A DNA stretch of 33,036 nt from a virus: positions 1-33,036 of the IMG/VR virus record IMGVR_UViG_3300035034_000107. One strand, written 5' to 3'. Positions 721 to 12,370 of this stretch are shown here, in pieces; position 1 is the first letter of the stretch; every line of letters starts with the position of its first letter. The position numbers and the translations under genes are program-made. The notes under the pieces were generated by a model. It made no database searches. It saw only the letters and a list, made by a program, of their open reading frames with translations, and had not been told where the DNA came from.

Positions 721-1538
721 TGGCAAAAGTAATATCAAGAGTTGGATTAAAAGATTATTGTCTACGTAGACTTGGGTTCCCTGTTATTGAAATTAACGTG
801 GATGACGACCAAGTAGACGATAGGATTGATGATGCATTCCAAATCTTTTTTGATTATCATTATGATGGTGTAGAAAGAAAATATCTTTCTGTTCAGATTA
901 CACAAACAGATATGGATAATGGATATGTAGAGATACCTGATTCTATGATTCATGTTACGCGGGTATTACCTTTCAATGCAGGTGGTGGCGGTGCTACATC
1001 ATTATATCCTATGGGCGACCCTTCATTGGCATGGGATTTCACAGTCAATAACCCATTTTCAGCTGGTATGCCGAGTGGTGGTGGTGGTGCATCTACTACA
1101 TCAGAAAGAGCAGGGGGTGCAACTGGTTTTGATAGAGTCAGTTACGTTCTTTCAATGGATTTATATGAATCAATCCAAAGCATGTTCGGCGGCGAAATGT
1201 CAATTAGTTTTTCACGTCATACTAACCGTGTTTACATTGATATGGATTGGGCAGAGAAATTAGCAGTTGATGACTATATCATAATTGAGGGGTGGAGTTC
1301 TTTAGACCCTGATGTTTATACTGATGTGTATAATGATAGATGGATTAAGCGATATTGTACTGCTGCGATTAAGCAACAATGGGGTGCTAATCTAATCAAA
1401 TACTCAGGTATTCAATTGCCCGGTGGTGTAACTCTGGATGGTGATAAAATGTTTGAATCTGCTTCTACTGAGTTGGAAAAACTTGAAGAAGAAATTCAAA
1501 TTAAGTATGAAGAACCGCCAACATTTTACATGGCATAA
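720..1538 (+). CDS. 13: Neck protein gp13
   Basis: This 272-residue protein matches T4 neck protein gp13 in its N-terminal region (a basic YCLRRLGFP segment followed by the acidic DDRIDDAFQIFFDYHYDG) and in its place just before gp14 and gp15. gp13 and gp14 form the collar that closes the filled head and receives the tail. T4 gp13 has 309 residues, so this one is shorter. Odd feature: two glycine-rich stretches (near residues 89-93 and 120-137, including a GGGGA run) form what looks like a flexible loop in the middle. The start ATG overlaps the stop of the upstream gene, which suggests translational coupling. Confidence 0.85.
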   Translation: MAKVISRVGLKDYCLRRLGFPVIEINVDDDQVDDRIDDAFQIFFDYHYDGVERKYLSVQITQTDMDNGYVEIPDSMIHVTRVLPFNAGGGGATSLYPMGDPSLAWDFTVNNPFSAGMPSGGGGASTTSERAGGATGFDRVSYVLSMDLYESIQSMFGGEMSISFSRHTNRVYIDMDWAEKLAVDDYIIIEGWSSLDPDVYTDVYNDRWIKRYCTAAIKQQWGANLIKYSGIQLPGGVTLDGDKMFESASTELEKLEEEIQIKYEEPPTFYMA

Positions 1539-1562
1539 ATAATAGATAAATAATAGATAAAT
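1534..1562 (+). promoter_or_regulatory. Tandem ATAAATA-type repeats, possible late promoters
   Basis: CATAAATA at 1534-1541 is followed by two perfect head-to-tail copies of the 11-mer AATAGATAAAT (1541-1551 and 1552-1562). Each unit contains xATAAATA, one base away from the T4 late promoter octamer TATAAATA. The array overlaps the gp13 stop and lies just upstream of the Shine-Dalgarno of the next structural gene. A late promoter cluster is likely, but no perfect octamer is present. The repeats could also be simple AT-rich slippage. Confidence 0.4.
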
Positions 1563-1587
1563 AATAAATTCTTAGGAGAATAATTTA

Positions 1588-2298
1588 ATGGCTAACGAAA
1601 ATCAATTTACAGTACAAGCACTTGGTGCATACATTGAAGAACTGGTTCGTCAATTTGACAGTGCAGTTACTTCAGTTGCAGTAAATGCAGATGGTACAGG
1701 TTATGTTGCTGAAGATGTAGTAACAATTGATGGTGGTGATGGTACTGCTACTATCCGTGTTGACACAGTAACATCAGGTGCAATCACAACATTCACTTTA
1801 CTATCTGGTGGTGCGCAATATGTAAACGCAACTGGTGCTACAGTAACAGGTGGTTCAGGTGCTGATGCTACATTCGACGTAACAGTTAATCCAGTTGACG
1901 ATGCTGAACTAGAAACAGCACTGGAAACTTTTGACACAGCATCTGCTCAAGCGAATCTACGTAAACTTCAGGTTCTACGTCAATTCCTTAGAAGCAATTC
2001 TATTGCAGGTGGTAAGGTTGCTTCTGTTGCTATCTCTGATGGTGGTACAGGTTACTCAGTAGGTGATGTTCTACCTGTTGCAGGTACTACAGGCGGTACA
2101 AGTGGTGCGGTAATCGTAACTTCTGTTAGTGCTGGTGTCATTGACGGTGTTGCGGTACATAACGCTGGTGGTAACTACTCAGGCGTAATCAGTGTTGATA
2201 CAACTGGTATCGGTGGCGAAGATGCGGTTATTACTGCTGTTGCAACTGTTGAATCAGAAAAGATTGTTAAGGATGTTATCTCTAATCTAGGTGGCTAA
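1588..2298 (+). CDS. Virion protein with two GTGY/GD beta-repeat modules
   Basis: This 236-residue protein lies between gp13 and gp14 behind a strong Shine-Dalgarno (AGGAGA). A short helical core (QALGAYIEELVRQFDSA at the start; a helix-rich stretch around residues 105-140) is interrupted and followed by two related beta-rich modules. Module 1 (about 32-98) has SVAVNADGTGYVAEDVV; module 2 (about 148-225) has SVAISDGGTGYSVGDVL. The same GTGY...GD module occurs in the gp18 sheath of this phage, which suggests a shared surface-exposed decoration domain. Composition (Gly, Ala, Thr, Val; no Cys) fits a virion protein. I know no T4 counterpart at this position; a head-tail joining or decoration role is inference. 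Confidence 0.6.
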   Translation: MANENQFTVQALGAYIEELVRQFDSAVTSVAVNADGTGYVAEDVVTIDGGDGTATIRVDTVTSGAITTFTLLSGGAQYVNATGATVTGGSGADATFDVTVNPVDDAELETALETFDTASAQANLRKLQVLRQFLRSNSIAGGKVASVAISDGGTGYSVGDVLPVAGTTGGTSGAVIVTSVSAGVIDGVAVHNAGGNYSGVISVDTTGIGGEDAVITAVATVESEKIVKDVISNLGG

Positions 2299-2316
2299 TC
2301 TTTTGGAATAACTCAT

Positions 2317-2336
2317 ATACCAAGGATGGTATTTTA
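2317..2336 (+). terminator. Weak hairpin before gp14
   Basis: ATACC (2317-2321), a six-base loop and GGTAT (2328-2332) are followed by TTTATAAT. The stem is only five pairs and the T-run short, so this could be a weak terminator or an mRNA-stabilising hairpin between the beta-repeat gene and gp14. Confidence 0.25.
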
Positions 2337-2361
2337 TAATTATTAATCAACTGAGTAATAT

Positions 2362-3024
2362 ATGCCTACGAATCTATATTTCGACCACTATCAAAACCGA
2401 ACTGAACAAAACTTAATCGAAGATTTAACAATCGAAGCGATTAAGATGTATGGTGTCGATGTGATTTATATGCCACGTGATACTATTTCACGTGATGACA
2501 TATTTGGTGAAGATATAGTTACTAAGTTCAACGATAATTATATGATTGAAATGTACCTTGAAACTGTTGACGGTTTTGGTGGGGATGGTGATTTCCTTGC
2601 TAAGTTCGGTTTACAGATTAAAGATACTGCCACGTTTGTATTGTCAAAACGTAGATTTCAAGAAACAATTTTTGGGAAACAACGACCACTTGAAGGGGAT
2701 TTAATATATTTCCCTTTAACTAATTCTATATTTGAAATCAATCATGTTGAACATGAAAATCCCTTCTACCAAATTGGTAAACTCCATTCATATAGCTTAA
2801 GTTGTGAATTGTTCACATTCTCACATGAGGATTTCGAAACTGGTAGAACAGATATTGACCGCGTTGCAACAGATAATTCACCGGAATTACTAGATGCAAT
2901 GGGTGACTCTGGCGATATTGACATTGAAGCGGCTGATGTATTAGACCCGAATGCATCTTCTTCAAGCAAGAAAGATTTGTCAAATCCATTATTTGATGAA
3001 ACAAATCCATTTGGAGATTTTTAA
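2362..3024 (+). CDS. 14: Neck protein gp14
   Basis: This 220-residue protein begins MPTNLYFDHYQNRTEQNLIEDL, followed by IYMPRD, a typical start for T4 gp14, and sits between gp13 and gp15. With gp13 it completes the head and forms the collar to which the tail joins. T4 gp14 has 256 residues. The C-terminal 50 residues are acidic and of low complexity and end in the repeated NPLFDETNPFGDF pattern seen at the end of gp14 proteins. The Shine-Dalgarno is not obvious (an AT-rich leader with CTGAG). The next gene starts three bases after the stop. Confidence 0.85.
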   Translation: MPTNLYFDHYQNRTEQNLIEDLTIEAIKMYGVDVIYMPRDTISRDDIFGEDIVTKFNDNYMIEMYLETVDGFGGDGDFLAKFGLQIKDTATFVLSKRRFQETIFGKQRPLEGDLIYFPLTNSIFEINHVEHENPFYQIGKLHSYSLSCELFTFSHEDFETGRTDIDRVATDNSPELLDAMGDSGDIDIEAADVLDPNASSSSKKDLSNPLFDETNPFGDF

Positions 3025-3027
3025 TAA

Positions 3028-3828
3028 ATGTTGGGTAGAACTTTTTATCATGGTGCGTTACGCAAACTGGTAATAGCTTTTGGTGCGCTATTCAATAACA
3101 TTACCATAGAACGTGTTGACGAGGATGGTGAAATAATAAAAATATTACCTGTGCCGCTTCAATATGTCACAAAAGAAAAATTCATTCGTAGAATTAATGA
3201 CTACGCTTCTATTGATGAACCCAATCCACGTATTCAAGAAACCTTACCACGCATGGGGTTTGAGATAACTGGTGTTTCATATGCATCTGAACGTAAAACG
3301 AATACGATTGATAAAATATTTGATAAATCAACTGACTCTACATATATGTTTAACAGAGTTCCATATGATGTAGATTTCACTTTGTATATTGCCGCACGTA
3401 AGATTGATGACGCATTCCGTATTGTTGAACAGATTCTACCTTACTTCACACCTGAGTTAAATATTAGAATTCAGGATATGATGGATTTTAGTATTGTTAC
3501 GAATATCCCACTGATATTACGTGATACTGCATTTGAGGTTGATTCTGATGGTTCGTTTGATGACCGTAGAACCGTTATGTGGCAATTAACATTCTCTGCA
3601 AAAACTCATCTGTATGGTGCGGTTCGTGGTGCTGATTTAATCAAGCGTTCTATTATAGATTTACATAATGTGCCTAATGATGTTGCATACTTTGCCGAAG
3701 AATATATAGCAACTGTAAACCCCGATACATCTGAGATTGATTCTGATATTAGCGATTCACGATATTACGATAGTATAAATAATACATATGCAGGCGAAAC
3801 CGTAAGCGTTGATTCGTTAGTTGAATAA
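3028..3828 (+). CDS. 15: Tail completion and sheath stabilizer gp15
   Basis: This 266-residue protein matches T4 gp15 (272 residues) in length, position and sequence, for example MLGRTFYHGALRK at the start and FIRRINDY near residue 55. gp15 forms the hexameric terminator ring at the top of the tail. It caps the gp3/gp18 end and docks to the gp13/gp14 neck. The gene starts right after gp14 with GGAG in the end of gp14 as its ribosome binding site. The end of the protein (about the last 30 residues) is acidic and Ser/Asp-rich. Confidence 0.88.
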   Translation: MLGRTFYHGALRKLVIAFGALFNNITIERVDEDGEIIKILPVPLQYVTKEKFIRRINDYASIDEPNPRIQETLPRMGFEITGVSYASERKTNTIDKIFDKSTDSTYMFNRVPYDVDFTLYIAARKIDDAFRIVEQILPYFTPELNIRIQDMMDFSIVTNIPLILRDTAFEVDSDGSFDDRRTVMWQLTFSAKTHLYGAVRGADLIKRSIIDLHNVPNDVAYFAEEYIATVNPDTSEIDSDISDSRYYDSINNTYAGETVSVDSLVE

Positions 3829-3843
3829 GGGGAGAGGGGTTAG

Positions 3844-4497
3844 ATGTTTGAATCGTTTATTGGTATTATTTTTCAGAATTATGGAATGGTAGGGGTAGGT
3901 GTATTAGTAGCTGCTCTTGGTGTTATAAAATGGTCTAGTGCTTTACTTAATATAATTAAAAAGATAAACCCATTTAAAAATAAAACTAATTATATACCAC
4001 GAGATATTTTATATTCTAAATTATCTTATTGGTTGGATTTTAAAATAGGCAATATTAATATCGTTGATTTAGGTAGACGTTTAATATTTAAAGATTTGCT
4101 TCATTATAAATTTGAAAGTTTAAGAGATACTTTATTTGACATTGAAGATAGAGAAGGATTTGACAGTTGGGATAGCCCAACGTTCTACAACGAAATCTTA
4201 AAGCGTGTTACACATAATACATTAGCGTATGAACTTGAAGCTACAAGAAATGGCATTCCACTTGTTGTAGTTACTAAATTTAAAAGGTGGCATAGTGGAA
4301 CGTTAGATTTCCTACTTAAGAGTGCTGAGTTGATTTCTGCTTCAAATGTGTATAAAAACAACCATGAACGTATGCAAGCTATATATACTGTATATACTGC
4401 TATGTTGGAAATACTTATTAATGAAGCAGAAAAAACGTTAACAGAACTGAATGGTGAGTTAACAGGTGTTGAATATAAAGGGGTGGTGTGTGGTTAA
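3844..4497 (+). CDS. Membrane-anchored protein of unknown function
   Basis: I do not recognise this 217-residue protein. It starts with one clear hydrophobic segment (about residues 5-35, MVGVGVLVAALGVIKW in its middle), followed by a basic stretch (KKINPFKNK) and a soluble, mixed alpha-helical remainder. That predicts an N-out, C-in anchor in the inner membrane. The start has a very strong Shine-Dalgarno (GGGGAGAGGGG). It lies between gp15 and gp16, where T4 has no gene. Its codons are more AT-rich than those of its neighbours in the first half. An accessory role in lysis timing, exclusion or assembly is possible, but nothing in the sequence decides it. Confidence 0.6.
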   Translation: MFESFIGIIFQNYGMVGVGVLVAALGVIKWSSALLNIIKKINPFKNKTNYIPRDILYSKLSYWLDFKIGNINIVDLGRRLIFKDLLHYKFESLRDTLFDIEDREGFDSWDSPTFYNEILKRVTHNTLAYELEATRNGIPLVVVTKFKRWHSGTLDFLLKSAELISASNVYKNNHERMQAIYTVYTAMLEILINEAEKTLTELNGELTGVEYKGVVCG

Positions 4498-4603
4498 AAC
4501 ATTCAAACCATTTCTGAGTGAATCATTTCAGGCTGACTTAATTAAGAAACATGGATTAACCGATGTTTCTAATTTTGTTGGATTTTCTGATTATGTATCA
4601 TAG
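4490..4603 (+). CDS. 37-residue protein with capsid-targeting-like leader
   Basis: A short frame overlaps the end of the previous gene. GTG 4490 has AAGGGG six bases upstream, and the frame ends at TAG 4601-4603, just before the gp16 ribosome binding site. The product begins MVKTFKPFLSES and continues to 37 residues. The start resembles the MKT(Y/F)xxF(L/I)xE leaders of T4 internal proteins and Alt, which carry proteins into the prohead and are cut by gp21 after L/I-x-E; here that site would be FLSE|S. About 25 residues would remain after cleavage. A small internal head peptide is the best guess. A chance frame is possible, but the spacing, Shine-Dalgarno and leader support a real gene. Confidence 0.5.
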   Translation: MVKTFKPFLSESFQADLIKKHGLTDVSNFVGFSDYVS

Positions 4604-4610
4604 GTGAAAT

Positions 4611-5024
4611 ATGACTGATGAGATTAGCGAATGTTTAGATATAGACCCGATTGAAGATGAACCATTAGAAAGATTTCCAATGGTTCATTCTCCCGTGGTC
4701 AGAGAAAATGCAGAAGATGACTATGAACACGTTCGACAATCAATGAAAGATATGATTGCGGATGGCACTGATGCAATCAGCACATTATCCAACCTCGCTA
4801 AAGAATCTGAATCACTACGTGCATATGAAGTATTTGCTAACACGTTAAAAACTATTACAGAAATGAATAAAGCACTTATGGATTTACATAAAGATGCTAA
4901 AGATATAATGGCTCAAAAAGATGAAGGAGTTGGTGACGGTACAGAGAAAGGTGATGGAACTATCACATTTACTGGTTCAACAGAGGAACTACAACGTCAT
5001 CTAAAAACAATTAATGGTAAATAG
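4611..5024 (+). CDS. 16: Small terminase subunit gp16
   Basis: This 137-residue protein sits directly before gp17 and overlaps it by 11 bases, as in T4. The centre (about residues 50-105) is strongly alpha-helical: a run of charged heptads containing TLSNLAKESESLRAYEVFAN and EMNKALMDLHKDAKD. This matches the coiled-coil core of gp16, which forms rings that recognise DNA and stimulate the gp17 ATPase. Both ends are acidic or flexible. T4 gp16 has 164 residues. The ribosome binding site is GGTGA upstream of ATG 4611. Confidence 0.85.
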   Translation: MTDEISECLDIDPIEDEPLERFPMVHSPVVRENAEDDYEHVRQSMKDMIADGTDAISTLSNLAKESESLRAYEVFANTLKTITEMNKALMDLHKDAKDIMAQKDEGVGDGTEKGDGTITFTGSTEELQRHLKTINGK

Positions 5025-6912
5025 AAATGATTTTTATAACGGTAATGCGAGTATCAAGAAAGCAGGTATTCAACAATCATTTACCGCTGAACAAGTCACA
5101 GAATACGTTAAATGTCAGAATGATGTAATTTACTTCATTAAGAACTACTGTAAGATTGTTTCACTTGATGAAGGTTTAGTATTATTCGAATTGCGTGATT
5201 ATCAAGAGCGCATGATTCGTGCGTATGATGAAAATCGTTTTAACATCACACTTACATCCAGACAGATAGGTAAGGATTTAGTATACGGTACAAAACTGCC
5301 TACACCTGAAGGTTGGATTAATATTGAAGATATTCAGATTGGTGACAGTGTATATGGTGATGACGGTAAACCAACAACTGTAATTAAAACTGAAGATTTT
5401 TCTCAAAAGAATGATATTTTTGAATTCCGGTTTGATAATGGAGATTCATTAAAATCATCTTCAACACATTTATGGACTGTAAATCATAATTCATGGAAAG
5501 AACCAAAAACATTAGAAACAAAAGATGTTATTAAGGAACATGAGAAACATAAAAAACAGGCTAAGAGTGGAGCTATCTACATTGATATTACACAACCTGT
5601 TGAGTTTGAAGAAAAAGTATTACCAATAGACCCGTACACATTAGGTATGTGGTTAGGTGATGGCCATTCTGATAGTGGTAGAATATCTGGCAATGGTTCA
5701 GATTTAATTGATATTCTTTCTAATGTACCGTATAAATTCAGAACAATCAGAAAAGATAATAGAAGTAATGACTGTTATAGAGTAACAGTTGATGGTTTGT
5801 ACAATGATTTGCTTCAAAACATTCTTATTCAAAATAAACACATTCCAGTAGAATATCTTAGAAGTTCTATCAATCAACGATTCGAATTGCTCAAGGGATT
5901 GATGGATGCTGACGGGTGTGCTTATAAAAATGGTCGATGTGAGTTTTATCAGAAAGATTATGATTTAGTTAAACAGGTTAGAGAATTAATATCTTCATTG
6001 GGTATTAAGAGTCGATTAAACAGTAAAATCATAAACGATGAAACTTATTACACTATTGGCTTTATATCAGATGTTGAAGTTTTCAAGTTAAAAAGAAAAT
6101 TAGATAATCAGACTAAGGCTAAACACCACCCAAAGAATAAAAGAATTTATATCCATGACATATTACATGTAGATGAATTACATGATACTCGTTGTATTGC
6201 GGTTGATAATGAAAGTCATTTGTTTTTAGCGGGTGAAACTATGATACCAACCCATAATACAACCGTTGTTGCCGCATACCTAATTCATTACCTAATATTC
6301 AATCCTGATAAATCAGTTGCTATTCTAGCAAATAAAGCTGCTACGTCAAGAGAAATTTTATCCCGTGTACAAAGAATGTTGGAAGGGTTGCCTTTCTTCT
6401 TACAACCCGGCGTTAAAGAATATAACAAAGGTTCTGTTGTATTTGGTAATGGTTCAAAGGTATTAGCAAGCGCAACATCTTCAGATTCAATTCGTGGTTT
6501 TACGTTTAACTGCGTTACAGGAAATACCAAAATAACAATTTTGGATGACTATGGTAGAATATTCTACACAAATATAAGTAATGCCAACTCACCTAAGTAT
6601 AAATACAATAAAGACTATAACTTATATGGTGAATGTATGTACTATACTGTGTATAAAATAATAAATAATAAAAATCAGAAAGAATATATTGGGTATCATC
6701 AAACTGACGATTTAGATGATGGGTATATGGGTTCTGGTAAACTAATAAAACGCGCCATTGAAAAATATGGTATAGAAAACTTCAGTAAAGAATATATTCA
6801 GATATTTGATAATAAATTAGATGCTGAAAATTTAGAAGCATTATTAGTATGTGAAGAAATTCCTGACGGTTATATTAGAGGATTTGTTCCAAAGGATTCT
6901 ATTCGTGCCTAA
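5014..6912 (+). CDS. 17: Large terminase gp17, N-terminal part, with two intein insertions
   Basis: This 632-residue frame encodes the N-terminal half of the packaging ATPase. Residues 1-87 are terminase up to Walker A (SRQIGK). Residues 88-415 are intein 1 with a LAGLIDADG endonuclease. Residues 416-499 are terminase again (TTVVAAYLIHYL to RGFTFN). Residues 500-632 begin intein 2 and run into a GIY-YIG endonuclease domain before TAA 6910-6912. The terminase does not end here: Walker B and the nuclease domain follow in another frame from 6905. Joining the three terminase pieces gives about 535 residues, against 610 in T4; the shortfall lies mainly before Walker A. The start overlaps gp16, as in T4. 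A single-base sequencing error near 6905-6912 would also explain the break. Confidence 0.88.
   Translation: MVNRNDFYNGNASIKKAGIQQSFTAEQVTEYVKCQNDVIYFIKNYCKIVSLDEGLVLFELRDYQERMIRAYDENRFNITLTSRQIGKDLVYGTKLPTPEGWINIEDIQIGDSVYGDDGKPTTVIKTEDFSQKNDIFEFRFDNGDSLKSSSTHLWTVNHNSWKEPKTLETKDVIKEHEKHKKQAKSGAIYIDITQPVEFEEKVLPIDPYTLGMWLGDGHSDSGRISGNGSDLIDILSNVPYKFRTIRKDNRSNDCYRVTVDGLYNDLLQNILIQNKHIPVEYLRSSINQRFELLKGLMDADGCAYKNGRCEFYQKDYDLVKQVRELISSLGIKSRLNSKIINDETYYTIGFISDVEVFKLKRKLDNQTKAKHHPKNKRIYIHDILHVDELHDTRCIAVDNESHLFLAGETMIPTHNTTVVAAYLIHYLIFNPDKSVAILANKAATSREILSRVQRMLEGLPFFLQPGVKEYNKGSVVFGNGSKVLASATSSDSIRGFTFNCVTGNTKITILDDYGRIFYTNISNANSPKYKYNKDYNLYGECMYYTVYKIINNKNQKEYIGYHQTDDLDDGYMGSGKLIKRAIEKYGIENFSKEYIQIFDNKLDAENLEALLVCEEIPDGYIRGFVPKDSIRA
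5275..6258 (+). other. Intein 1: class 3-like intein with LAGLIDADG endonuclease, inside Walker A
   Basis: The insertion covers residues 88-415 of the gp17 N-terminal frame (328 residues) and splits SRQIGK from TTVVAA, i.e. the P-loop itself. Block A is GTKLPTPEGW; the first residue is Asp (GAT 5275), not Cys or Ser. Block B has SSTHLWTVN with His152 and Trp154. Block F has RCIAVD with Cys394. Block G is MIPTHN followed by Thr. Trp (B:12), Cys (F:4) and Thr (G:5) form the W-C-T triplet of class 3 inteins, which lack a nucleophile at position 1 and use the block F Cys instead. The endonuclease has LGMWLGDG (210-217) and LLKGLMDADG (292-301). Splicing would restore SRQIGKTT. Confidence 0.9.
6598..6605 (+). 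promoter_or_regulatory. Late-promoter octamer inside intein 2
   Basis: A perfect TATAAATA lies 32 bases before the ATG (6637) that begins the GIY-YIG domain. Some phage homing endonucleases, such as T4 I-TevI, are transcribed from their own late promoter embedded in the host gene. An A/T-only octamer is expected by chance a few times in 33 kb of AT-rich DNA, so this is weak evidence. Confidence 0.25.
6891..6896 (+). promoter_or_regulatory. Shine-Dalgarno for the C-terminal terminase half
   Basis: AAAGGA lies eight bases before GTG 6905, the start I choose for the second terminase frame. It lies inside the end of the first frame, whose TAA (6910-6912) comes just after the GTG, so ribosomes finishing the first half could restart on the second. 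The earlier GTG at 6851 in the same frame has no comparable site. Confidence 0.55.
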
Positions 6913-7207
6913 AGTATTGACCGATGTCGGGTTTAAATCATTTGATGGTGTTCGTATATCTGAGAACAGTGAAGAAAAGTATGTTATTAATGTTGATGGG
7001 GTAAAAACCACATGCACTAAAGAACATAGAGTAAAATTAATATCTGGAAACTTTATTGAAGTCGATAAACTAACAACTAATGATATTTTATCAAACAATA
7101 AACGAGTTAATGATATTGGACTTATCAACTCAAATGAACTTGTCTATGATTTAATTAACGTAGATGACACACATGCATATATAACAAATAATCTTACTTC
7201 ACATAAC
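6905..7207 (+). other. Intein 2, C-terminal piece
   Basis: These 101 residues have the plan of an intein body without endonuclease: the segment PKVLTDVGFKSFDGVR, block B with CTKEHRVKL, block F with VYDLINVDDTHAYI, and block G NLTSHN followed by the extein Cys of CVYLDE. The final His-Asn and the next Cys are the expected splicing residues. The length and opening resemble, from memory, the C-terminal piece of the AceL-TerL atypically split intein, inserted at the same terminase position before Walker B. Confidence 0.82.
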
Positions 7208-8302
7208 TGCGTTTATCTTGATGAATTTGCCTTCGTTGAAGGTGCTGACGATTTCTACACATCTACTTACCCTGTAATTTCATCCGGTAAAGATACCAAG
7301 ATTATCATTACATCAACTCCAAACGGTATGAATCTATTCTACAAGTTATGGATGGATGGTATAAATGACCAAAATGATTTCAATAACATTCGCGTCGATT
7401 GGTGGGAAGTTCCACATTATGACCAAGCATGGAAAGAAACAACTATAAGAAATATCGGTGAGAAGAAATTCTCACAGGAATATGCAAACTCATTCTTCGA
7501 TAGTTCTGCTACATTAATTGATGGTGAGAAATTAGCTGCAATGACGTGGGTTAGACCCCTTGAGGAATCAGAAACCATCAAGGTTTGGGAAAAATCAATT
7601 GAAGGTCATTCATACATTGCATTGATTGATGTATCTGAAGGTGCTGGTTCTGATTATTCTGTGATGAATATTATTGATATTACAGAAACACCATATAAAC
7701 AAGTATGTCAATACAGAAATAATAAAGTAACTCCACTTGTGTTCCCTGAGATTATTGAACGACTGGCTAAGGAATATAATGAATCATTTATATTAGTTGA
7801 AGTTAACTCTATTGGCGCACAGGTGGCGAATATTCTCTATTTTGATTATGAATGTGAAAATATGATTATATCCAACATAAAAGCCGGTGATAATGTTATA
7901 TCAGGTGGTTTTGCTGGTAATATTGATTACGGGCTACGAATGACTAAGAAATCTAAACGTATTGGTTGCTCAAATCTTAAATCATTAATCGAAAATGATT
8001 TATTACTAATACAAGATTTCGATGCAATATCAGAATTACAAACATTCACTAAAAAAGGGCAATCATATGAAGCTGAAGATGGAAAACATGACGATGTTGT
8101 TATGACTTTGGTTTTATTAGGGTGGTTGTCAACTCAGGATTACTTCAAAGATTTAATGGATTTCGATTCACGAGCAAGAATTCTTGAAATGAAAATGGAA
8201 TCAATTGAAGATGATTTAACCCCAATGGGATTTTTCAATAATGCGGCTGAAGAAGCCGAAGAAGCCTATTCACTATACGATGAATACAATAATGTTTTCT
8301 AG
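6905..8302 (+). CDS. 17: Large terminase gp17, C-terminal part, preceded by the intein 2 C-terminal piece
   Basis: From GTG 6905 the frame encodes 465 residues. Residues 1-101 are the C-terminal part of intein 2; residues 102-465 are the rest of gp17. Terminase motifs follow in order: Walker B (CVYLDEFAFVEG), the coupling motif (TSTPNG), then the RNase H-like nuclease with Asp in ALIDVSEGAGSDY, Glu in LVEVNS and Asp-Asp in KHDDVVMTLVLLG. The tail is acidic. Neither half has both Walker motifs in working form, so function needs joining by splicing. A longer reading starts at GTG 6851, but its first 18 residues are an off-frame reading of the GIY-YIG region and look artificial. The next gene is gp18, as in T4. 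Confidence 0.85.
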   Translation: MPKVLTDVGFKSFDGVRISENSEEKYVINVDGVKTTCTKEHRVKLISGNFIEVDKLTTNDILSNNKRVNDIGLINSNELVYDLINVDDTHAYITNNLTSHNCVYLDEFAFVEGADDFYTSTYPVISSGKDTKIIITSTPNGMNLFYKLWMDGINDQNDFNNIRVDWWEVPHYDQAWKETTIRNIGEKKFSQEYANSFFDSSATLIDGEKLAAMTWVRPLEESETIKVWEKSIEGHSYIALIDVSEGAGSDYSVMNIIDITETPYKQVCQYRNNKVTPLVFPEIIERLAKEYNESFILVEVNSIGAQVANILYFDYECENMIISNIKAGDNVISGGFAGNIDYGLRMTKKSKRIGCSNLKSLIENDLLLIQDFDAISELQTFTKKGQSYEAEDGKHDDVVMTLVLLGWLSTQDYFKDLMDFDSRARILEMKMESIEDDLTPMGFFNNAAEEAEEAYSLYDEYNNVF

Positions 8303-8319
8303 CCCACAATCTTATTTTT

Positions 8320-8327
8320 TATAAATA
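8320..8327 (+). promoter_or_regulatory. Late promoter for gp18
   Basis: A perfect TATAAATA lies 56 bases upstream of the gp18 start, in the only sizeable gap between gp17 and gp18. This is the octamer recognised by the T4-type late sigma factor gp55, which is encoded at 20944 in this window. The sheath Shine-Dalgarno AAGGAG follows. Confidence 0.8.
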
Positions 8328-8382
8328 TTGATAAATTAACTAGATTTTTGAAGTAAATTGACTGAGATTAAGGAGATAAAAT

Positions 8383-10338
8383 ATGGGTTTTCAATTAAGT
8401 CCGGGTGTTAATGTATCTGAAGTTGACTTAACTGGTTTCATCCCTGCTGTTGCAACTACAGGTGGCGCATTCGTAGGCCAGTTTGATTGGGGGCCAGTTG
8501 AAGAATATAAAACTATTGAAGATAAGAATAAACTTGAAAAATGGTTTGGTAAACCTTCTGATGTAAATTATAGAGATTGGTTTAGCTGCGCTAACTTTTT
8601 AGCATATTCAGCAAACTTGAATGTTGTTCGTGTTGTTGAATCAACCGCATTGAATGCTTCTGCTGATGGTTCTGGAATTCTTATTAAAAATGAAACACTA
8701 CACAGCACTATTTTAGGTACACCATCTGGTGATGCTGCAATGCTTGCTGCTCGTTTCCCCGGTGCATTGGGTAATAGTTTAAAAGTTTCAATGGCTGATG
8801 CTACAACTTTCGATTCATGGGATACCAATTATAAAGATTTATTCGATGGCGCACCAAGCACTTCAGGTTTTGCTGAAGTGCTTGGTGGTTCAAATGATGA
8901 ACTTCACGTTGTTGTTGTAGACGAAGATGGCTTGTTTAGTGGAGTGCCGGGCACTGTGCTAGAACGATTCGCTTATGTTTCAAAAGCAAAAGATGCAAAG
9001 CGTTTAGATGGTGAACCTTCTTTCTATGGTTCTATTCTTAATAAACAATCTGAATACATTTGGTTCCTAGAAGTTCCTGCTGCTAGTGCATATGTTGTTG
9101 ACGGTTCTGTTAATGAGCTTACAATCACTGATGCTGGTACAGGTTACGTTGTTGGTGACGCGATTACTGTAACAGGTGATGGTAGTGGTTTTACTGCTGA
9201 AGTAGCTACTATTGATACTGGTGGTGAGATTCTTACAATCACAATCACTAATGCTGGTACAGGTTACACAAATGCTACTGTAGATTTCAGTGCTGGTAGT
9301 GGTACTGGTGCAACTGCTGATGCGGTTATCACTGATACATCAACCGATGCTGCATGGAATACTGCTGCTGCTGGTGCAACTTTCTCTAACCTTGCAACTG
9401 CATATACTGTTTCATTATCTGCTGGTACAAATGGTTCTGCGGTAACTGCTAATGAACTGATTGTTGGTTGGGATATGTTCATTAACTCTGAAGTTGTTGA
9501 CGTGTCACTGTTATTCGTTGGTGATGCAGGTGGTGACACTGAACACACTGCTGTTGTAAAACACGTTATTGATAATGTTGTTGAAGCACGTAAAGATGCT
9601 ATAGCATTCTTCTCACCACTTTACAGTGATGTGGTTGGTATTTCTGAATCTACTGCTGTTGATAACGCAATTGCTACACGTGATACAGTTAACACAGTAT
9701 CTTCATATGCGGTAATGGATTCAGGTTACAAGTATCAATATGATGCATACAATGACAAATATCGTTGGATTCCACTGAATGCTGATATTGCTGGTCTAGC
9801 TGCATACACTGATAACGTATCTGACCCTTGGTATTCACCTGCTGGTTTCACTCGTGGTCAAATTAAGAATGGTATTCAACTTGCATTGAATCCTTCTAAA
9901 ACATCGCGTGATAAACTGTACAAGAGTTCAATCAACCCTGTTGTTTCATTCACAGGTGAAGGTGTTCTTCTGTATGGTGACAGAACACAGCAAGCTAAAC
10001 CTTCCGCTTTCCAGAAAATCAATATCCGTAGACTGTTTATTGTTCTTGAAAAATCGGTGGCGGTTGCTGCTAAGTATCAACTATTTGAGTTTAATGATTC
10101 ATTCACACGCGCCCAATTCGTTAATATGGTTGAACCTTTCTTACGTGAAGTAAAAGGTCGCCGTGGTATTTTCGATTACTCAGTGGTTTGTGATGAAACA
10201 AACAACACACCTGAAGTAATTGACCGTTCTGAATTTGTTGCAGATATTTACGTTAAACCTGCATACTCAATTAACTTCATTCAGCTTAACTTTGTAGCTG
10301 TTCGTAGTGGTGTTGAGTTCAGTGAAATCATTGGTTAA
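8383..10338 (+). CDS. 18: Tail sheath protein gp18
   Basis: This 651-residue protein matches T4 gp18 (659 residues) in length, position and sequence: an N-terminal LSPGVNVSEVDLTGFIPAV and a C-terminal strand pair (VKPAYSINFIQLNFVAVRSG) that interlocks neighbouring subunits. gp18 forms the contractile sheath around the gp19 tube. The middle domain (about residues 243-320) carries two copies of a GTGY beta-repeat (ITDAGTGYVVGD and ITNAGTGYTN) like those in the protein at 1588-2298. In T4 this part of gp18 is the exposed protruding domain, so the repeats likely decorate the tail surface. A late promoter and strong AAGGAG precede it. Confidence 0.93.
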   Translation: MGFQLSPGVNVSEVDLTGFIPAVATTGGAFVGQFDWGPVEEYKTIEDKNKLEKWFGKPSDVNYRDWFSCANFLAYSANLNVVRVVESTALNASADGSGILIKNETLHSTILGTPSGDAAMLAARFPGALGNSLKVSMADATTFDSWDTNYKDLFDGAPSTSGFAEVLGGSNDELHVVVVDEDGLFSGVPGTVLERFAYVSKAKDAKRLDGEPSFYGSILNKQSEYIWFLEVPAASAYVVDGSVNELTITDAGTGYVVGDAITVTGDGSGFTAEVATIDTGGEILTITITNAGTGYTNATVDFSAGSGTGATADAVITDTSTDAAWNTAAAGATFSNLATAYTVSLSAGTNGSAVTANELIVGWDMFINSEVVDVSLLFVGDAGGDTEHTAVVKHVIDNVVEARKDAIAFFSPLYSDVVGISESTAVDNAIATRDTVNTVSSYAVMDSGYKYQYDAYNDKYRWIPLNADIAGLAAYTDNVSDPWYSPAGFTRGQIKNGIQLALNPSKTSRDKLYKSSINPVVSFTGEGVLLYGDRTQQAKPSAFQKINIRRLFIVLEKSVAVAAKYQLFEFNDSFTRAQFVNMVEPFLREVKGRRGIFDYSVVCDETNNTPEVIDRSEFVADIYVKPAYSINFIQLNFVAVRSGVEFSEIIG

Positions 10339-10346
10339 TTTGGTAT

Positions 10347-10365
10347 GGGGTAGTTATTCTACCCC
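10347..10365 (+). terminator. Hairpin between gp18 and gp19
   Basis: GGGGTAG (10347-10353), loop TTATT and CTACCCC (10359-10365) form a perfect seven-pair stem. No T-run follows, so it is not a classic terminator. It may protect the 3' end of the sheath transcript or cause partial termination. A similar stem follows dUTPase (29267-29298). Confidence 0.5.
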
Positions 10366-10400
10366 TGCTAAATAATATAAAGAATAATAGGAGAATATAG

Positions 10401-10940
10401 ATGGCTGAAGAAATTGGCGTTAATAGTTTTATTGCGCAATTTACAGGTGGTGGTGCTAGACCTAACTTGTATAAGGTTACACTAAACTTCCCGGCAATTG
10501 CTGCTGGTCAAGGTAGTGCAACTAAACGTTCAATGTTATGTAAGGCGGCAACATTGCCACAATCAACTATCGGTATGGTTAACGTTCCATTCATGGGTCG
10601 TAACATTAAAGTAGCTGGTGATAAAGAGTTCCCTGAGTGGACTGTTACTATGCTTAACGATACTGATTTTGATACACGTAAATCGTTTGAAACATGGCTT
10701 AACCGAATTAATAATCATGCACTGAATGTTGGTGTAGCTACACCACTTGCGTATATGTCATCAATTCAAGTAGAACAATTAGACCGTTTAGGTCGAGTAA
10801 TCTACAAATATGAATTGGTTGGATGTTTCCCAACTGAAGTTGGAGAAATCTCATTAGGTTATGACCAAAATGATGCTGTGGAGGAATTTACTGTTACCTT
10901 TGCTATGCAGTATTGGACTTCCGATGGTGCAATTGTTTAA
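10401..10940 (+). CDS. 19: Tail tube protein gp19
   Basis: This 179-residue protein matches T4 gp19 (163 residues): a start of the type FIAQFTGGGARPNLYKVTLNFP, then CKAATLPQSTIG, the VAGDKEFPEWTVTMLND strand and a C-terminal VTFAMQYW. gp19 hexamers stack into the inner tail tube through which DNA passes. It follows gp18 as in T4, behind AGGAGA. The portal gp20 would normally follow, but a homing endonuclease gene lies between them here. Confidence 0.93.
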   Translation: MAEEIGVNSFIAQFTGGGARPNLYKVTLNFPAIAAGQGSATKRSMLCKAATLPQSTIGMVNVPFMGRNIKVAGDKEFPEWTVTMLNDTDFDTRKSFETWLNRINNHALNVGVATPLAYMSSIQVEQLDRLGRVIYKYELVGCFPTEVGEISLGYDQNDAVEEFTVTFAMQYWTSDGAIV

Positions 10941-10945
10941 AACAG

Positions 10946-12370
10946 ATGAAAACCTTTATTAATGAAAATCTTTTAACCAAGGATGGTATGAAGATTAATC
11001 CGCGAAAATGTAGAAAGGATTGGTTTGATAATAATGGATTTAGTTCTCAATACAATCAAATCGTAACATCTACTAATTGGTGCAGTTCATTTAGTGAGCG
11101 GTGCTACAGCATATTAAATAATATCACAGAAAACCCTACATGTGTTGACTGTGGTTCTGATACGAAGTTCCGAAATAAAACAGGGTATTCAGTTCGTTGT
11201 GTTACTTGTTCAAGTAAACATGAATCCACTAAACTACAACACCCCGATGTTGTAAATAGACGAAATGTTTCTATAAAAGAATCTTATCAAAACTTTAATT
11301 TCACTGATAGAAATATAAAGTCAAGAGAAACAACATTAATAAACCACGGCGTTTCACATCATATGAAGTTGGATGTTTATAGAGACTTCTATTCAAAACT
11401 ACAACGTAAAGAAATTCCGGTTAATCTACTTGATACTAATAAAACTATTGCAAATATTCAAGATGAAACTGGGTTTTCTGAGAGTCATATTAGACAGGAA
11501 TATCATAAAAATGACATTGAATGGAGGTCTGTTAAATCAAAGTACGAGCAAGAGCTTGTATCATTTTTAGACTCATTGGGTATTGAGAATATTGTAACTG
11601 GCACTCGCTCAGTAATTACACCCCTTGAACTAGATATTTATCTGCCAGATTATGACTTAGCAATAGAGTTTAATGGTTTATATTACCACTCAGATATATT
11701 CAAAGAAAAGAAATATCATTTACTTAAAACGGAATTATGTGAAGATAATAATATTCAATTACTTCATATATTTGAGCATGAATGGAATACTAAAAAAGAT
11801 ATATGGAAGGCATTAATATCGGCTAAGTTGGGTAAATCCGACCGTATATATGCTAGAAAATGTAAACTCGCTCTAGTTGAAAATAATGAATCGAATACAT
11901 TCTTAAATGAAAATCACTTACAGGGGTCGATTAATTCTTCATTATCACATGGTTTATATCATGATAATGAGTTAGTGGCTCTAATGACTTTCGGTAAATC
12001 TAGGTTTACATCAGGTGAATATGAATTATACAGATATTGTAATAGAAAGGATATTACTGTGGTTGGGGGTTTTTCTAAATTATTGAAAAACTCAAACATC
12101 ACTAATGTTATCTCATATGCAAATAGGCGCTGGTGTGGAAAAAGAAATGTTTATGAGTCTAATGATTTTGAGTTGATAAACACAACACCTCCGAATTATT
12201 TTTATTTTGATAATAAACATAATTTCTATAGCAGAAATAAATTTATGAAACATAAATTAAGTACCCAATTATCTCAATTCGATTCCAATCTAACTGAATA
12301 TCAAAACATGATAAATAATGGGTATAATCGCATATTTGATTGCGGTAACTACAAATACATTTATAGGTGA
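10946..12370 (+). CDS. Free-standing EDxHD/Vsr-like homing endonuclease
   Basis: The product has 474 residues from ATG 10946; the frame is open a little further upstream, but that part reads through the end of gp19. Near residues 66-88 two CxxC pairs (CVDC...CVTC) form a zinc finger. After a helix-turn-helix-like stretch (TIANIQDETGFSESHIRQEY), residues about 198-280 hold a PD-(D/E)xK-type nuclease core: ELDIYLPDYDLAIEFNG with Glu228, Asp230 and Glu241, then YYHSD (His248). This fits the EDxHD family of phage homing nucleases related to Vsr. The last 170 residues (HLQGS, LVALMTFGKSRF, SYANRRW, SRNKFMKHKL) are a domain often fused to such nucleases. No Shine-Dalgarno is seen. The N-terminus MKTFINE|N resembles a gp21-cleaved leader. 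The end of the gene supplies the gp20 ribosome binding site. Confidence 0.78.
   Translation: MKTFINENLLTKDGMKINPRKCRKDWFDNNGFSSQYNQIVTSTNWCSSFSERCYSILNNITENPTCVDCGSDTKFRNKTGYSVRCVTCSSKHESTKLQHPDVVNRRNVSIKESYQNFNFTDRNIKSRETTLINHGVSHHMKLDVYRDFYSKLQRKEIPVNLLDTNKTIANIQDETGFSESHIRQEYHKNDIEWRSVKSKYEQELVSFLDSLGIENIVTGTRSVITPLELDIYLPDYDLAIEFNGLYYHSDIFKEKKYHLLKTELCEDNNIQLLHIFEHEWNTKKDIWKALISAKLGKSDRIYARKCKLALVENNESNTFLNENHLQGSINSSLSHGLYHDNELVALMTFGKSRFTSGEYELYRYCNRKDITVVGGFSKLLKNSNITNVISYANRRWCGKRNVYESNDFELINTTPPNYFYFDNKHNFYSRNKFMKHKLSTQLSQFDSNLTEYQNMINNGYNRIFDCGNYKYIYR

What the first reader, a model, noticed from the sequence alone, without database searches (positions are those of the whole stretch)
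6511..7207. Large terminase appears to be encoded in two pieces joined by a split intein with a GIY-YIG gene at the break
The intein before Walker B starts normally with Cys at 6511, but after about 40 residues the frame enters a GIY-YIG domain and stops at 6910-6912. The remaining intein (101 residues) and the rest of gp17 are in the +1 frame. GTG 6905 has AAAGGA eight bases upstream and overlaps the stop, so the second half can be translated on its own. Seen directly: the frames, motifs and splice residues. Known: the AceL-TerL/GOS-TerL family of atypically split inteins sits at this terminase site with a very short N-piece and a roughly 100-residue C-piece, and 'fractured' phage genes with endonucleases at the split exist. 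Inferred: trans-splicing. A GIY-YIG domain fused to the N-piece would be an unusual arrangement and could show how split inteins arise.
Basis: partly seen in the sequence, partly recalled or inferred. Interest (0 to 1): 0.95.

Follow-up and report, generated by a model that had tools for sequence, protein, structure and literature searches.

The report
Split intein fused to GIY-YIG nuclease
This phage makes its DNA-packaging motor protein as two separate chains that are predicted to be joined by a split self-splicing protein (an intein), and the first chain also carries a GIY-YIG gene-homing nuclease glued to the intein; the same layout recurs in a dozen other viral contigs and, with a different nuclease, in cultured E. 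coli phages that differ from RB49 at this gene by just this element.

Summary
terL is read as two overlapping ORFs: 5014-6912 (TerL N-half, IntN, GIY-YIG, stop) and GTG 6905-8302 (101-aa IntC, TerL C-half). It is not a frameshift error. Two near-identical contigs each carry the layout in part, and at least 11 diverged contigs (37-54% IntC identity) repeat it, most with ATGA or TAATG stop/start overlaps. The IntC matches the engineered AceL/GOS-TerL consensus intein Cat in sequence (E=1e-7) and fold (Z=13.3). Predicted splicing gives a gap-free 535-aa gp17.

IntN-nuclease fusion is recurrent. The GIY-YIG fusions form one nuclease clade; Vibrio phages carry a different GIY-YIG fused at another terL site; E. 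coli phage kaaroe carries a TnsA-like nuclease fused to IntN. Kaaroe's terL equals RB49's uninterrupted terL (99.6%) plus exactly 1288 bp from Cys1 to Asn, a length not divisible by three. Contiguous inteins nested among the fusions keep a Met where the split IntC starts, so splitting may be reversible. The window's own nuclease lost about 214 aa including its DNA-binding repeats, so it is probably no longer mobile.

Trans-splicing itself is inferred. New variant of a known kind (fractured genes with split inteins).

The parts
5014..5274 (+). TerL (gp17) N-extein, first part, to Walker A (SRQIGK)
   Evidence: spliced product aligns without gap
5275..6258 (+). contiguous 328-aa intein 1 at Walker A, LAGLIDADG, Asp at position 1, probably class 3
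   Evidence: (LAGLIDADG_3 E=5e-11); class 3 is my reading of W/C/T residues
6259..6510 (+). TerL N-extein, second part (TTVVAAY...SIRGFTFN)
6511..6582 (+). IntN core of the split intein, CVTGNTKITILDDYGRIFYTNISN
   Evidence: conserved in 12 fusions; model strands 7-11 and 16-21
6583..6636 (+). linker between IntN and nuclease (low pLDDT at residues 32-40)
6637..6852 (+). GIY-YIG catalytic domain fused in frame to IntN; Met at its first residue is probably a vestigial start codon
   Evidence: I-TevI Z=6.3, rmsd 2.7, 78 aligned
6853..6909 (+). remnant of nuclease C-tail after an in-frame deletion of about 214 aa (NUMOD3 region); a TGAAGA repeat at the junction is a possible cause
6892..6896 (+). 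AAGGA Shine-Dalgarno-like site for the second ORF, inside the nuclease tail
   Evidence: AAGGA also found in L003 and L006
6905..6912 (+). 8-nt stop/start overlap: GTG start of IntC ORF (6905) and TAA stop of N-half (6910-6912)
6905..7207 (+). IntC, 101 aa, with TxxH motif (TKEH) and terminal SHN
7208..8302 (+). TerL C-extein, starts Cys+1 then VYLDEFAF (Walker B) and the nuclease domain

Best explanation
gp17 (TerL) is made as two polypeptides by translationally coupled ORFs. The first ends in a short IntN (about 24-31 aa) fused through a flexible linker to a GIY-YIG homing nuclease; the second begins with a 101-aa IntC. The two intein pieces associate into one Hint fold and splice in trans (Cys1 / Asn101 / Cys+1), giving a 535-aa gp17 and releasing an IntN-nuclease/IntC complex. 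In full-length relatives the nuclease then drives homing of the whole cassette into intein-less terL alleles; in this window the nuclease has lost its DNA-binding tail, so the cassette is probably a fixed, splicing-only remnant. Shown: architecture, homology, conservation, fold, cassette mobility in relatives. Inferred: trans-splicing, nuclease activity, homing.
For: Same two-ORF layout in at least 11 diverged contigs, most with ATGA/TAATG overlaps. IntC = CatC by sequence and fold; model pLDDT 91.5. GIY-YIG catalytic residues invariant; I-TevI-like model. dN/dS below 0.5 wherever it could be estimated, for IntN, GIY, tail and IntC. Cassette of L003/L048 94-96% nt identical against 78-80% in flanking exteins. 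Cultured analogue with another nuclease: kaaroe terL = RB49 terL (99.6%) plus exactly 1288 bp from Cys1 to Asn; the cassette in JK32 is 99.5% identical with only synonymous codon changes while the exteins are 94.3%. These phages have no other visible route to a full-length TerL.
Against: No splicing or expression data exist for any of these. The two TerL halves might work without ligation. GIY-YIG Pfam hits in the window are just below the curated cut-off. The kaaroe case uses a different nuclease and a different terL site, so it supports the architecture class, not this exact element.
Confidence: 0.88

Rival explanations
1. Sequencing or assembly frameshift in a contiguous cis-splicing intein that carries a GIY-YIG domain.
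For: A single-base indel would put both parts in one frame in the window.
Against: Near-identical contigs keep the break; diverged relatives have clean stop/start overlaps with their own ATG start and another relative frame; kaaroe's cassette is 1288 bp, not divisible by three, in several independently sequenced isolates.
Confidence: 0.02
2. The halves are never spliced; TerL works as a two-chain protein, as in the genes-in-pieces NrdA split by a homing endonuclease.
For: A nuclease-split gene that works as two peptides is known (cited in PMC10448857).
Against: Cys1, TxxH, SHN and Cys+1 are kept in nearly all members and IntC is under purifying selection; AceL/GOS/Cat relatives splice in trans (PMC11766414).
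Confidence: 0.06
3. Programmed ribosomal frameshifting near 6905 yields one long polypeptide with an intact cis-splicing intein.
For: The two frames overlap by 8 nt.
Against: Relatives have overlaps of 1, 4, 8, 13 and about 29 nt, or a 320-nt gap (L006), with different relative frames and no shared slippery site.
Confidence: 0.03
4. Evolutionary direction: a contiguous intein was split by nuclease insertion several times, rather than a split fused ancestor being rejoined in L096, L108 and L112.
For: Contiguous members exist at all terL sites; an internal Met could have been pre-adapted as a start.
Against: Fused GIY-YIG domains (11 of 12) form one clade (95/92) while fused inteins do not form one clade (AU p=0.012); L096, L108 and L112 keep a Met at the IntC start position, absent from the other contiguous inteins looked at.
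Confidence: 0.35

Closest known systems
AceL-TerL / GOS-TerL atypically split inteins and engineered Cat (6dsl)
   Same: TerL host, short IntN and ~100-aa IntC, homologous IntC (E=1e-7; Z 13.3, rmsd 1.6), Cys1/Cys+1 as in AceL
   Different: IntN here is not the end of its polypeptide but is fused to a GIY-YIG nuclease; native gene layout and insertion site of AceL/GOS could not be checked here
AceL NrdHF split class 3 intein with intervening GIY-YIG (PMC7891396)
   Same: fractured phage gene, split intein, GIY-YIG nuclease at the break
   Different: described there as an intervening nuclease between the two genes; canonical split (98/48 aa), class 3, another host gene
Fractured genes with split inteins and free-standing nucleases (Dassa 2009, not held; MIJ3 PolB with HNH, PMC6892783)
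   Same: split intein with nuclease at the break in a phage gene
   Different: nuclease is a separate ORF there; here it is fused to IntN and coupled to IntC
VidaL intein (6vgv)
   Same: atypical split, similar IntC fold (Z 12.9)
   Different: only 15% identity
Krischvirus terL cassette (kaaroe, SAP, TB34, G2494, phiS, JK32)
   Same: IntN fused in frame to a nuclease, overlapping IntC ORF
   Different: TnsA-like nuclease, inserted inside Walker B (IDE|C); annotated as hypothetical protein or terminase, no description of the intein found

Membership tests
AceL/GOS-TerL-type atypically split intein | IntC of ~100 aa homologous to AceL/GOS/Cat IntC | tested here: met
   6dsl_B E=1e-7 over residues 3-102; Z 13.3
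AceL/GOS-TerL-type atypically split intein | short IntN (15-37 aa) split near strand 2 or helix 1 | tested here: met
   IntN core 24-31 aa before low-confidence linker; range from PMC13014065
AceL/GOS-TerL-type atypically split intein | same terL insertion site | not tested
   native flanks of AceL/GOS-TerL not available here; relatives of this IntC occupy at least three terL sites
AceL/GOS-TerL-type atypically split intein | protein trans-splicing | not testable with these tools
   needs co-expression
Class 1 intein | Cys/Ser at 1, TxxH block B, terminal HN, nucleophile at +1 | tested here: met
   Cys6511, TKEH, SHN, Cys+1
Fractured-gene split intein | host gene in two ORFs each carrying an intein piece, homing nuclease at the break | tested here: met
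Fractured-gene split intein | nuclease as separate free-standing ORF | tested here: not met
   nuclease is in frame with IntN
GIY-YIG homing endonuclease | GIY-YIG fold and catalytic Y, Y, E residues | tested here: met
GIY-YIG homing endonuclease | DNA-binding tail (NUMOD3) | tested here: not met
   lost in window (about 214 aa missing), present in L002 (weak), L003, L054, L057, L060

The most novel reading that the evidence does not exclude
IntN-nuclease/IntC cassettes are a distinct, recurrently evolved form of mobile intein in phage terL (fusion arose at least three times, with three nuclease lineages), in which a split intein plus fused nuclease homes as one unit and, once the nuclease is lost, can revert to a contiguous intein; splitting is thus a reversible stage of the intein homing cycle.
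Probability: 0.5. Interest if true: 0.88.

Novelty: new variant of a known kind. Interest (0 to 1): 0.8.

Why it matters
How naturally split inteins arise and spread is an open question. Here free-standing, fused, decayed, absent-nuclease and contiguous states of one intein family can be compared side by side, and cultured E. coli phages (kaaroe with the cassette, RB49 without it, 99.6% identical exteins) allow a direct test of splicing and homing. A 2006 survey stated that GIY-YIG nucleases were not found in inteins (PMC1564403). The family is also a source of new short-IntN split inteins for protein chemistry, and some members appear to build TerL from three chains by two tandem split inteins.

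Tried and rejected
Frameshift artefact (rejected by L002, L005 and diverged relatives). Group I/II intron (Rfam gave only two chance snoRNA hits). Relatives in bacterial and archaeal genome contigs: none confirmed. Programmed frameshift: no shared slippery site, variable overlap. RNA_capsid Pfam hit on IntC (E=5e-4, below cut-off) judged chance. Scan with the IntN-GIY-YIG protein mostly returned free-standing GIY-YIG genes. One nucleotide profile (L060 against L108) was unusable because of alignment gaps and was replaced by part-wise identities. Dassa 2009, Aranko 2014 and Sekar 2022 are not held, so prior description of a fused layout cannot be fully excluded.

Full report
WHAT IS THERE. The window is a 33-kb IMG/VR virus record with T4-like structural genes. 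Its terL is read as two ORFs. ORF 1 (5014-6912) holds the N-half of TerL, a contiguous LAGLIDADG intein at Walker A (5275-6258), then from Cys 6511 a short intein N-piece that runs in frame into a GIY-YIG domain and stops at TAA 6910-6912. ORF 2 starts at GTG 6905, eight bases after AAGGA, and holds a 101-aa intein C-piece ending SHN, then the C-half of TerL. Removing both inteins gives a 535-aa gp17; the junction region aligns without a gap to an uninterrupted TerL region.

NOT AN ARTEFACT. Contig L005 (99.9% over window 1511-6966) and contig L002 (99% over 6840-10592) carry the same stop and start. More telling, diverged contigs have the same layout with their own start codons: TAATG in L003 and L048, the 4-nt ATGA overlap in L054, L057, L060, L102, L106 and L113, 13 nt in L117, about 29 nt in L064. 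L006 has a decayed nuclease with a 320-nt gap, yet keeps IntN and an ATG-started IntC. Rfam finds no intron.

INTEIN IDENTITY. The IntC matches CatC, the engineered consensus intein of the AceL/GOS-TerL type, over its length (E=1e-7). A confident model (pLDDT 91.5) matches Cat best (Z 13.3, rmsd 1.6 over 97 residues), then VidaL and many other inteins. The N-piece model has two strands (7-11, 16-21), a low-confidence linker at 32-40 and a GIY-YIG fold (43-124) like I-TevI (Z 6.3, rmsd 2.7, 78 aligned). Z of 6.3 alone is modest; the invariant catalytic residues carry the assignment.

THE NUCLEASE. In relatives the fused protein is about 333-350 aa after Cys1 and carries NUMOD3 DNA-binding repeats. 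The window lacks about 214 of these residues, in frame, while close relative L002 still has the tail. A TGAAGA repeat, seen at the junction in L002 and in the homologous left flank of L003, is a possible cause (inference). The window's nuclease is therefore probably inactive in homing. In 9 of 11 fusions examined a Met stands exactly at the first residue of the GIY-YIG domain, mostly without a ribosome site. This looks like the vestige of the start codon of a once free-standing gene (inference).

A SERIES OF STATES. The same IntC family is found with free-standing GIY-YIG (L053, L058, L073, L148), HNH (L059) or other nucleases between the halves, split without nuclease (L049, L063), and contiguous (L062, L083, L096, L108, L112 and others). 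L052 is contiguous with a linker resembling a NUMOD3 remnant by eye; Pfam does not call it. In Campylobacter phage CPX the halves lie about 22 kb apart.

INDEPENDENT FUSIONS IN CULTURED PHAGES. Vibrio phages 1.244.A and VP-1 have IntN fused to a different GIY-YIG at a third terL site. E. coli phage kaaroe has IntN fused to a TnsA-like nuclease whose relative is free-standing, at the same site, in HY03, phiR1-RT and PspYZU05. Kaaroe terL minus the cassette is 99.6% identical to RB49 terL; the cassette is exactly 1288 bp, from Cys1 to Asn, not a multiple of three. The JK32 cassette is 99.5% identical to kaaroe's with six synonymous and no nonsynonymous codon changes, while the exteins are 94.3% identical: horizontal movement of the cassette as a unit. 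L003 and L048 show the same in the GIY-YIG group (cassette 94-96%, exteins 78-80%, dS about 0.2-0.4 against saturated).

DIRECTION OF CHANGE. Eleven of twelve fused GIY-YIG domains form one clade against free-standing ones (95/92). Their inteins do not: contiguous L108 and L112 are sisters of fused L060, and L096 groups with the window's clade in the IntN+IntC tree. The IntC-only tree rejects a single fused clade (AU p=0.012), although it leaves L096 unresolved. L096, L108 and L112 retain a Met where the split IntC begins; the other contiguous members looked at do not. The simplest reading is loss of nuclease and rejoining, so splitting is reversible; repeated invasion of contiguous inteins by one nuclease lineage is the rival. 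The trees rest on about 100-124 columns and have long branches.

MECHANISM. Coupled translation, association of IntN and IntC, trans-splicing through Cys1, Asn101 and Cys+1, and release of an IntN-nuclease/IntC complex. Architecture, homology and mobility are shown; splicing, cleavage and homing are inferred from established intein biology.

PRIOR KNOWLEDGE. AceL-TerL and GOS-TerL are known trans-splicing inteins with short IntN (PMC11766414, PMC13014065). AceL NrdHF has an intervening GIY-YIG nuclease (PMC7891396). In 2006 GIY-YIG was reported as not found in inteins (PMC1564403). No held paper describes an IntN-nuclease fusion, but key papers are not held.

Noticed in passing
L003:1721-5468; L057:798-5318; L060:1906-6389: TerL appears to be made from three chains: a split intein at Walker A (IntN ends ORF 1, IntC starts ORF 2, a separate ORF lies between) plus the split intein described here; a natural tandem trans-splicing set.
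   Followed up: partly
window 5275-6258: Walker A intein starts with Asp and seems to have the W/C/T residues of class 3 inteins, with a LAGLIDADG domain.
   Followed up: no
L082:2501-3829 and L092:2602-3318 (minus): Campylobacter phage CPX has its two TerL halves with IntN and IntC about 22 kb apart on opposite strands; the N-half is annotated hypothetical.
   Followed up: partly
L072:3345-3746: Possible Ser1 split intein at Walker B of TerL (VDE|SLYGSS) with Cys+1, the residue pair reported for GOS-TerL.
   Followed up: no
L081:742-2493: kaaroe_25, annotated hypothetical protein, is the TerL N-half fused to IntN and a TnsA-like nuclease; six Krischvirus records share the cassette.
   Followed up: yes
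window 10913-12370: ORF of 485 aa between structural genes with homing-endonuclease-like look (zinc-ribbon-like CxxC motifs), overlapping the end of the preceding tail-tube-like gene (10401-10940).
   Followed up: no
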